Shown one piece after another: positions 3,300-4,041 of a DNA stretch of 6,667 nt. Positions within the stretch are counted from its first letter, which is position 1, and each line of letters opens with the position of its first letter. The notes beneath the pieces are model-generated. The model ran no database searches and was not told the DNA's origin. It saw only the letters and a program-made list of their open reading frames with translations. Position numbers and translations under genes: made by a program. Origin of the DNA: Trebonia sp. (GTDB lineage: Bacteria; Actinomycetota; Actinomycetes; Streptosporangiales; Streptosporangiaceae); NCBI GenBank assembly GCA_030038035.1, contig JASHPP010000174.1, positions 1-6,667 on the forward strand, written 5' to 3'.

Positions 3300-3698
3300 A
3301 TGAGGGTAGGCCATCTCGGACGCGGCCAGCAGGTCCACGTTGTCACGCAGGCGCGCCGTGGGCTGTCCGAGGACATCGCGTACCGCCAGCACCGGTACCT
3401 GATCATGATGGCCATCCGCACCGTCTGCTTCGCGATCGCGATCATCTTGTTCGTCAACCACCTGGGGTGGCTGACGGCTATCCCCGCCGTCGGGGCGATC
3501 GCCATTCCGTATTTCGCCGTGGTGTTCGCAAACGGCGGGCGAGAACCCGCCAACGTCCGCGGGTTCATGGAGTACCAGATGAATCTGCCTGCCCGCAGGG
3601 AGCCCGGCGGGCCATCTGATGACTCTGGCGACTCGGCTTCCGGCGGGTCTGCCGGCGGGTCTGCTGGCCCGGCCGCGGACCGCGCGGACGGCGATTGA
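3300..3698 (+). CDS. DUF3099-family small membrane protein
   Basis: This 132-aa protein matches the actinobacterial DUF3099 family as I know it. A short N-terminal segment ends in ARRGLSEDIAYRQHRYL (residues 18-34). Two hydrophobic helices follow, about 33-53 (MMAIRTVCFAIAIILFV) and 56-77 (GWLTAIPAVGAIAIPYFAVVF), and then the conserved FANGGREP. The tail (about 101-132) is a low-complexity, acidic Gly/Ser/Ala stretch that probably lies free in the cytosol. The family has no established function; its members are small predicted inner-membrane proteins. The start at ATG 3300 fits a leaderless message. Other starts further in would cut into the conserved VVTQARRGLSED segment. It follows tldE in the same direction but is separated by two hairpins and probably has its own promoter. 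Family confidence is good; no role is proposed. Confidence 0.85.
   Translation: MRVGHLGRGQQVHVVTQARRGLSEDIAYRQHRYLIMMAIRTVCFAIAIILFVNHLGWLTAIPAVGAIAIPYFAVVFANGGREPANVRGFMEYQMNLPARREPGGPSDDSGDSASGGSAGGSAGPAADRADGD
3641..3664 (+). repeat. Perfect 12-bp tandem duplication in the DUF3099 tail
   Basis: CGGCGGGTCTGC occurs twice back to back (3641-3652, 3653-3664), encoding the repeated Gly-Gly-Ser-Ala of the C-terminal tail. It keeps the frame and probably arose by slippage; the tail is likely variable in length between relatives. Confidence 0.75.
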
Positions 3699-3886
3699 GG
3701 CCAGGGATAGCCCGCGCTCATTTGTCGCCGGCCAGCGACGGGATTGGCGCTCGCCGCCTATGCGGAATCAAATGGAGGTTCGGAAGCGTACGCATGGGAC
3801 CTTCGGCGTCCCGCCAGCATCGGCAGCATCGCACTTGCGGCTTCAAGTGCCGAAAACGCCGCCGCGGATTCGTTAAGAATTGGGTC
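3699..3886. other. Non-coding stretch between the DUF3099 gene and the small-RNA promoter
   Basis: I find no credible gene here: frames crossing it are short, lack a properly spaced Shine-Dalgarno, and run into the promoter and RNA downstream. It is visibly less GC-rich than the coding DNA. It holds a weak hairpin 26 bases after the DUF3099 stop (GTCGC 3724-3728 / GCGAC 3735-3739), which may be part of a terminator. A short direct repeat, CAGCATCG, occurs twice (3815-3822, 3824-3831). A clean hairpin lies at 3831-3850. Confidence 0.6.
3831..3850 (+). terminator. Perfect 7-bp hairpin, possible terminator or regulatory stem
   Basis: GCACTTG (3831-3837) and CAAGTGC (3844-3850) form a perfect stem around the loop CGGCTT, followed by CGAAAACG. 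It stands about 130 bases after the DUF3099 stop and about 36 bases before the small-RNA -35. It may insulate the small RNA from upstream read-through. The absence of a T-run makes the terminator role uncertain. Confidence 0.35.
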
Positions 3887-3918
3887 TTGACACACCCCGG
3901 GGTGTTTCCGTGTACGAT
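3887..3918 (+). promoter_or_regulatory. Promoter of the C-rich-loop small RNA
   Basis: A perfect TTGACA (3887-3892) is followed by TGTACGAT (3911-3918). If the -10 is TGTACG the spacer is 18 bases; if TACGAT, 20 bases. The predicted transcription start (about 3923-3926) falls exactly at the base of the first hairpin, which supports the pairing of promoter and RNA. It is the best consensus -35 in the window. No start codon with a ribosome site follows it, so it most likely drives a non-coding RNA. Confidence 0.65.
3892..3905. promoter_or_regulatory. Perfect 14-bp palindrome in the promoter spacer (operator candidate)
   Basis: ACACCCCGGGGTGT is a perfect palindrome starting at the last base of the -35 and filling most of the spacer, where a bound repressor would block RNA polymerase. 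The layout of G/C tracts with A/T-flanked ends is reminiscent of CsoR-type operators, but this is a resemblance only and no such regulator is encoded in the window. It is seen directly; the operator role is inferred. Confidence 0.45.
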
Positions 3919-3924
3919 TCATAT

Positions 3925-4041
3925 CGGGTGCTCTGGTCCCCCGTCGGGGCACCGCTGCCGGCGTTCCGGGCCCCCGTCGGAGCGCCGATGATAGCGACGC
4001 CGGGTGGTTTGCCCCCGTAGCCACCCGGCGTCGCCCTATTT
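3925..4041 (+). ncRNA. 6C-like small RNA with C-rich hairpin loops
   Basis: Two hairpins follow the promoter directly. Hairpin 1 (3927-3953) has an 8-bp stem including two G-U pairs and the 11-nt loop GGTCCCCCGTC. Hairpin 2 (3959-3987) has a 9-bp stem with one G-U pair and the 11-nt loop GGGCCCCCGTC, which differs by a single base. A strong terminator-type hairpin follows, with a third C-run in its loop (GCCCCCGTAG). The stems differ in sequence while the loops are conserved, which points to selection on the loops. Actinobacterial 6C RNA is defined by two stem-loops with C-rich loops, often followed by a hairpin terminator. In mycobacteria (B11/6C) the C-rich loops pair with G-rich messenger regions near ribosome sites; in Streptomyces coelicolor the RNA rises during sporulation. 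This RNA fits that pattern except that each loop has five, not six, consecutive C. The ends are estimated from the promoter and terminator. If it is not a true 6C member, it is a look-alike C-loop small RNA. Confidence 0.72.
3994..4041 (+). terminator. Strong 14-bp hairpin terminator of the small RNA
   Basis: GCGACGCCGGGTGG (3994-4007) pairs perfectly with CCACCCGGCGTCGC (4021-4034), with a 13-nt loop holding GCCCCCGTAG. CCTATTT follows, a short T-rich end. It is the strongest stem in the window. It lies about 57 bases beyond the permease stop on the other strand, so it may terminate both convergent transcripts. The 50 bases from 4042 to 4091 hold nothing else I can recognise. Confidence 0.75.

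What the first reader, a model, noticed from the sequence alone, without database searches (positions are those of the whole stretch)
3925..4041. 6C-type small RNA with three C-rich loops, including one in the terminator
Seen directly: two hairpins with 11-nt loops GGTCCCCCGTC and GGGCCCCCGTC, plus a 14-bp terminator hairpin whose loop carries GCCCCCGTAG. A TTGACA promoter starts exactly before the first stem. Known 6C RNAs have two C-rich loops; a third C-run in the terminator loop, and five instead of six C, would be a variant. Repeated identical loops on different stems suggest multivalent pairing with G-rich ribosome sites.
Basis: partly seen in the sequence, partly recalled or inferred. 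Interest (0 to 1): 0.75.

Follow-up and report, generated by a model that had tools for sequence, protein, structure and literature searches.

The report
Three-looped C-rich actinobacterial small RNA
This stretch most likely encodes a small regulatory RNA, conserved in many actinobacteria and without a match in the RNA-family library searched, that probably switches off genes by pairing its C-rich loops with G-rich messages; it resembles the known 6C RNA but is a separate RNA.

Summary
Window 3927-4034 carries three hairpins, each with a CCCCC loop, behind a promoter-like TTGACA/TACGAT pair. It looks like a real conserved RNA: 70 of 118 relatives of a Nonomuraea genome match strongly. In 35 distinct sequences no loop column varies, while 18 of 40 predicted pairs show double compensatory changes.

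It is not 6C. The Rfam scan lists no 6C in the window at E<=1, and 67 of those 70 genomes have a separate RF01066 match elsewhere. A C-run in the terminator is not new either: B11/6C pairs through its terminator loop.

A covariance model finds 119 of 394 class genomes. Of 90 loci read, all have the terminator C-loop; 33 have three C-loops, 37 two, 20 one. DUF3099 lies just upstream in 63 of 90.

Best explanation: a trans-acting sRNA of about 115 nt whose CCCCCGU loops pair with ACGGGGG-type tracts near ribosome-binding sites. Structure, strand and conservation are shown computationally; expression and targets are not, and a strict four-genome target scan found no recurring gene.

The parts
3887..3892 (+). 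-35-like TTGACA (part of TCTTGAC 3885-3891)
   Evidence: sequence; CTTGAC with a 20-nt spacer to TAnnnT in all 42 distinct promoters that the pattern matched (a 43rd entry, spacer 14, is a second reading of L066)
3913..3918 (+). -10-like TACGAT, preceded by GTG
   Evidence: sequence; TAnnnT conserved in relatives
3924..4041 (+). predicted sRNA, about 115-118 nt
   Evidence: ends inferred from promoter position and terminator hairpin; alignment A2; stems hold 51 G-U and 0 A-C cells read on the + strand
3927..3953 (+). hairpin H1, C5 loop 3938-3942
   Evidence: loop identical in 35 of 35 distinct rows of A2
3959..3987 (+). hairpin H2, C5 loop 3971-3975
   Evidence: loop identical in 35 of 35 distinct rows of A2
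3994..4034 (+). hairpin H3, terminator-like, C5 loop 4012-4016; the part found in all class loci read
3300..3698 (+). DUF3099 gene, the upstream neighbour here and in 63 of 90 class loci read
   Evidence: Pfam PF11298

Best explanation
Window 3924-4041 (+) is a gene for an independently transcribed, trans-acting small RNA of about 115 nt. It belongs to an actinomycete RNA family for which Rfam 15 gave no match. The stems act as scaffolds that present near-identical CCCCCGU loops. Each loop can pair with an ACGGGGG-type tract in an mRNA, most likely near a ribosome-binding site, blocking translation and exposing the mRNA to decay. The terminator loop is the basic seed, and up to two extra C-loop hairpins upstream add multivalency. 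Shown here by computation: the three hairpins, strand, loop conservation with compensatory stem change, conserved promoter-like motifs, and separateness from 6C. Inferred: transcription, antisense pairing, targets, the repressive outcome and the order of evolution.
For: Conservation: 77 of 118 relatives match at E<=1e-3, 70 of them at E<=8.5e-19. Covariation: 18 of 40 pairs with double changes in 35 distinct sequences; in the class-wide alignment (49 distinct rows, fitted to the model) 96.8% of cells pair, 19 of 25 pairs have double changes and 0 of 500 shuffles reach this. Loop columns of A2 are 100% identical, against 94% for stems and 81-86% for linkers. Strand: 51 G-U against 0 A-C cells in A2 stems, 106 against 8 in A4. 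Class search: 119 of 394 genomes, one match each. Promoter-like motifs: 20-nt spacer in the three-loop form; a -10-like motif before the hairpins in 39 of 57 other loci, against 0.5% of random 50-nt windows. Mechanism by analogy: B11/6C pairs its terminator C-loop with G-tracks near ribosome-binding sites (PMC12395582); sX13 uses C-rich loops on G-rich motifs (PMC3771888); RepG uses its terminator loop (PMC8295292).
Against: No transcript data were available. A scan for GACGGGGGA-N3-8-ATG in four genomes gave 28 matches, 9 for the reversed-pattern control, and no encoded protein recurred between genomes. The window's terminator has no good U-tract, and the generic scans flagged neither promoter nor terminator. 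Conserved loops could also serve a protein. One three-loop locus (L164) has four C in loops 1 and 2. DUF3099 was not found upstream in 27 of 90 class loci: 19 of 33 three-loop and 8 of 57 others; all 8 of the latter also lack the -10 motif, so those may be other 3' ends. 18 of 57 loci lack the -10 motif.
Confidence: 0.72

Rival explanations
1. It is a divergent copy of the 6C RNA (RF01066).
For: Same architecture: C-loop hairpin(s) followed by a C-loop terminator.
Against: RF01066 is not listed for the window at E<=1; 67 of 70 strong-match genomes have a separate RF01066 match at E<=1e-3, 66 of them over the cut-off; model R1 does not hit the six 6C loci L008-L013 at their 6C positions; loops are mostly C5 then GU, not C7 then GG.
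Confidence: 0.06
2. It is a protein-binding decoy RNA: repeated near-identical loops titrate an RNA-binding protein such as Rho or a cold-shock-like protein, in the way CsrB-type RNAs work (recalled).
For: Near-identical loops, one to three per RNA, conserved beyond the stems.
Against: No partner protein known; the C-rich-loop sRNAs whose passages I read pair with G-tracts.
Confidence: 0.15
3. It is only a structured 3' untranslated region or terminator of the upstream gene, with no trans function.
For: Same strand and just downstream of DUF3099 in 63 of 90 class loci read; eight loci lack both DUF3099 and the -10 motif.
Against: Promoter-like motifs directly before the hairpins in most loci; the three-loop form persists with its promoter where no DUF3099 was found; loops are conserved while stems co-vary; up to three C-hairpins is more than termination needs; DUF3099 occurs in 375 of 394 genomes but R1 matches in 119.
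Confidence: 0.07

Closest known systems
6C RNA / B11 (RF01066)
   Same: Actinobacterial sRNA; C-rich apical loops; one C-loop lies in the terminator and is the seed in M. marinum (PMC12395582, abstract and passages).
   Different: Two loops of six or more C, separate locus, separate covariance model; here one to three loops, mostly C5 then GU; both RNAs are found in 67 of 70 genomes.
sX13 of Xanthomonas
   Same: 115 nt, three stems with apical C-rich loops, acts on mRNAs with G-rich motifs, reported Hfq-independent (PMC3771888, abstract and passages).
   Different: Unrelated bacterium and locus; homology was not tested; the passage seen names a CCCC motif in loops 1 and 2 and did not show loop 3.
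RepG of Helicobacter pylori
   Different: Different phylum; homology was not tested.
scr5583 and scr1434 of Streptomyces
   Same: Expressed Streptomyces sRNAs with a C-rich loop (PMC3765725, passages).
   Different: Their names point to other gene neighbourhoods (inference); their sequences were not seen, so identity was not tested.

Membership tests
6C RNA (RF01066) | covariance-model hit at or above the gathering score (47 bits) | tested here: not met
   relaxed Rfam scan of the window at E<=1 lists four sub-threshold matches, none RF01066 and none at 3925-4041
6C RNA (RF01066) | two stem-loops, each with six or more C (wording from PMC8388888, passage) | tested here: not met
   three loops of five C each
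6C RNA (RF01066) | is the genome's 6C locus | tested here: not met
   in relatives 6C lies at other coordinates, 67 of 70; the window's own genome is not held
6C RNA (RF01066) | pairs with G-rich sites near ribosome-binding sites through C-loops | not testable with these tools
   needs RNA work; a narrow target scan was negative
the family described here (models R1, R2) | terminator-like hairpin with a C-run loop and covarying stem | tested here: met
   R1 scores window 3959-4036 at 91.4 bits, but the window is one of its training rows; covariation; C-run loop in 90 of 90 class loci read
the family described here (models R1, R2) | same strand, just downstream of DUF3099 | tested here: inconclusive
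   met in the window and in 63 of 90 class loci; not found in 27, so it is common but not defining
any Rfam 15 family | gathering-level match | tested here: not met
   window; seven loci at gathering scores, no match; 25 further loci at E<=0.5 or 0.1, only one sub-threshold Burkholderia match

The most novel reading that the evidence does not exclude
An undescribed global actinomycete sRNA in which the seed is the terminator loop itself and the number of near-identical seed hairpins has grown from one to two to three, partly by hairpin duplication. It would give Streptosporangiales a multivalent G-tract regulator that works in parallel with 6C on a different regulon.
Probability: 0.4. Interest if true: 0.7.

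Novelty: new member of a known kind. Interest (0 to 1): 0.52.

Why it matters
It would add a widespread, strongly covarying RNA family to actinomycetes, a group in which few trans-acting sRNAs are understood (recalled) and in which the search for an Hfq equivalent is open, at least in mycobacteria (PMC8628891, passage). The natural series of one, two or three C-loops is a ready-made test of what each loop contributes. Co-existence with 6C asks how two C-loop RNAs share or divide G-tract targets.

Tried and rejected
6C membership was tested with Rfam and rejected. A peptide-coding reading was judged unlikely, without a formal test: 1-3 nt length changes between the hairpins would break a frame (A2). 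The palindrome ACACCCCGGGGTGT in the window's promoter spacer was considered as an operator; relatives do not conserve it. Chance matches L077, L079 and L080 were not counted as family members. Alignment A2 uses 35 distinct sequences that I picked from loci flagged with H1 by a pattern that itself asked for C5 runs, which allows 4-7 C, gives 5-5-5 in 58 of 61 loci (L065 and L069 are contig-end fragments; L014, missed by that script, has all three) and in 26 of 33 class loci, 4-4-5 in L164; six were not matched by that script but counted three C-loops. Alignment A4, from which R2 was built, holds one antisense self-match of L099. The loop tally was wrong (upstream CCCC taken for loops, hairpins 1 of L129 and L130 taken for terminators). 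still missed TCGGG arms: L121 was called two and seven loci got no call; I moved these eight to three after reading them. A target scan in four genomes gave no protein shared between genomes. Plasmid and phage searches found only a chromosome-sized Nonomuraea gerenzanensis record without annotation there (the window's RNA was searched in plasmids only). Literature searches (listings, plus passages) showed no description of this RNA. Supplementary files could not be opened (cap of zero), so a Streptomyces orthologue may already be listed there.

Full report
What is there. The window (no genome held) encodes part of a short-chain dehydrogenase, two TldD/PmbA-type proteins, a DUF3099 protein (3300-3698), then an intergenic stretch, then on the other strand an ABC-2 permease, its ATPase and a PadR regulator. 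In the intergenic stretch lie three hairpins with C5 loops (3938, 3971, 4012) and stems of 11, 11 and 16 pairs; 0 of 1000 dinucleotide shuffles has three such hairpins within 120 nt, and the fold is 4.1 s.d. more stable than shuffles. TTGACA 3887-3892 and TACGAT 3913-3918 lie 20 bp apart. The generic promoter and terminator scans flagged neither end.

Relatives. A scan of genome contigs with the neighbouring TldE-like protein gave seven loci. Five of the seven (Streptosporangiaceae MAG, Nonomuraea fuscirosea, Planomonospora sp., Actinomadura viridilutea, Microbispora bryophytorum) hold the same three hairpins; in the Propionibacteriales and Acidimicrobiales MAG loci the scan did not show them. 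In 118 relatives of the Nonomuraea genome, 77 match at E<=1e-3 and 70 of these at E<=8.5e-19. I read sequence from 60 of those 70 genomes. Of the seven weak genomes, six hold a shorter relative at that match; in G097 the match was chance, and a copy elsewhere was found later with model R2.

Selection on structure and loops. In 35 distinct three-hairpin sequences (identical copies dropped), 18 of 40 predicted pairs show double compensatory change. All loop columns are identical in all 35; stems average 94%, linkers 81-86%; the stems contain 51 G-U and no A-C cells, so the + strand is the likely RNA (in the class-wide alignment 106 against 8). These rows were chosen with a pattern that asked for C5 runs; a looser check found 5-5-5 in 58 of 61 loci and one real exception among class loci, L164 with 4-4-5. 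The class-wide alignment (52 matches, 49 distinct, fitted to the model and so leaning towards it, one of them an antisense self-match) pairs in 96.8% of cells with 19 of 25 pairs doubly changed, above all 500 shuffles and all slid versions.

Not 6C. RF01066 is absent from the window scan at E<=1. It is present in 95 of 118 of the same relatives at E<=1e-3, 89 over the cut-off; of the 70 strong carriers of the new RNA, 67 have both, at different coordinates (not G071, G072, G073), 66 of them with 6C over the cut-off. The 6C copies read here have loops such as CUACCCCCCCGG and CUCUCCCCCCCGG, the second in the terminator-like hairpin. Model R1 does not match them at those places. Rfam scans of 7 + 25 related loci gave one sub-threshold match to a Burkholderia family and nothing else.

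Family range and loop number. Model R1 (two-hairpin core) finds one match per genome in 119 of 394 class genomes at E<=1e-3 (strict filters); R2, built from such matches, finds 151 of 394 at the looser E<=0.1. I read 90 class-draw loci: the 30 best-scoring and 60 lower-scoring ones that I chose, so not a random sample. All 90 have the C-run in the terminator loop; 33 have three C-loops, 37 two (L194 is marginal) and 20 one (with eight loci moved to three after reading them; sequences). Hairpins 1 and 2 are 76% identical on average over 35 rows, which fits a duplication but also shared constraint.

Context. DUF3099 lies upstream on the same strand in 63 of the 90 loci: 35 of 37 and 14 of 20 lower-scoring ones and 14 of 33 three-loop ones (two tblastn queries). 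In the 19 three-loop loci without it, no upstream reading frame looked like DUF3099 to my eye where one search listed one. DUF3099 itself is in 375 of 394 genomes, so neither needs the other. In several relatives a small cysteine-containing protein and a MoaA-like protein follow (names recognised by eye, not searched).

Promoter. In the three-loop form the spacer between CTTGAC and TAnnnT is 20 nt in all 42 distinct sequences matched, where the pattern allowed about 14-24. In other clades a -10-like motif stands before the hairpins in 39 of 57 loci (26 of 37 in 50-nt windows, 13 of 20 in 80-nt windows), against 0.5% of random 50-nt windows. Independent transcription is therefore likely but not shown.

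Mechanism. C-rich-loop RNAs with worked-out mechanism pair with G-tracts: B11/6C through its terminator loop (PMC12395582, abstract and passages) or either of its two loops (PMC10470900, passages), sX13 with C-rich loops (PMC3771888, abstract and passages), RepG with its terminator loop (PMC8295292, passages). The conserved CCCCCGU predicts ACGGGGG-type targets. A strict first scan (GACGGGGGA-N3-8-ATG, four genomes) gave 28 matches against 9 for the reversed control, about nine of them before gene starts that look plausible to me, and no protein recurred between genomes. This tests one loop, one start codon and a narrow spacing only, so it neither supports nor excludes the mechanism.

Novelty. 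No Rfam 15 family matched, and searches of open full texts showed no description. Supplementary sRNA lists were not readable. I therefore call it a new family of a known kind.

Noticed in passing
window 3885-3918 and relatives: The three-loop form has an unusual promoter: CTTGAC, then 20 nt, then TAnnnT preceded by GTG. The long fixed spacer resembles promoters that need an activator such as a MerR-type regulator (recalled).
   Followed up: partly
window 3891-3904: The window's promoter spacer region holds a perfect 14-bp palindrome ACACCCCGGGGTGT; relatives do not conserve it.
   Followed up: partly
L157, L161, L185-L189, L193: The same C-loop terminator hairpin occurs where no DUF3099 was found, with one C-loop and without the -10 motif; some upstream stretches hold CGGGGG, which could pair with the loop in cis.
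   Followed up: no
L097, L099-L102, L105, L109, L111, L115, L116, L118-L123, L163-L165: Three-loop RNAs without a detected DUF3099 upstream; in several, frames there look like the reverse strand of a dodecin gene (by eye).
   Followed up: partly
NZ_LT559118.1: An 11.85-Mb Nonomuraea gerenzanensis record is filed as a plasmid; its size suggests a chromosome.
   Followed up: no
G071, G072, G073: Three genomes carry the new RNA but show no RF01066 match; whether 6C is lost or only missed was not checked.
   Followed up: no
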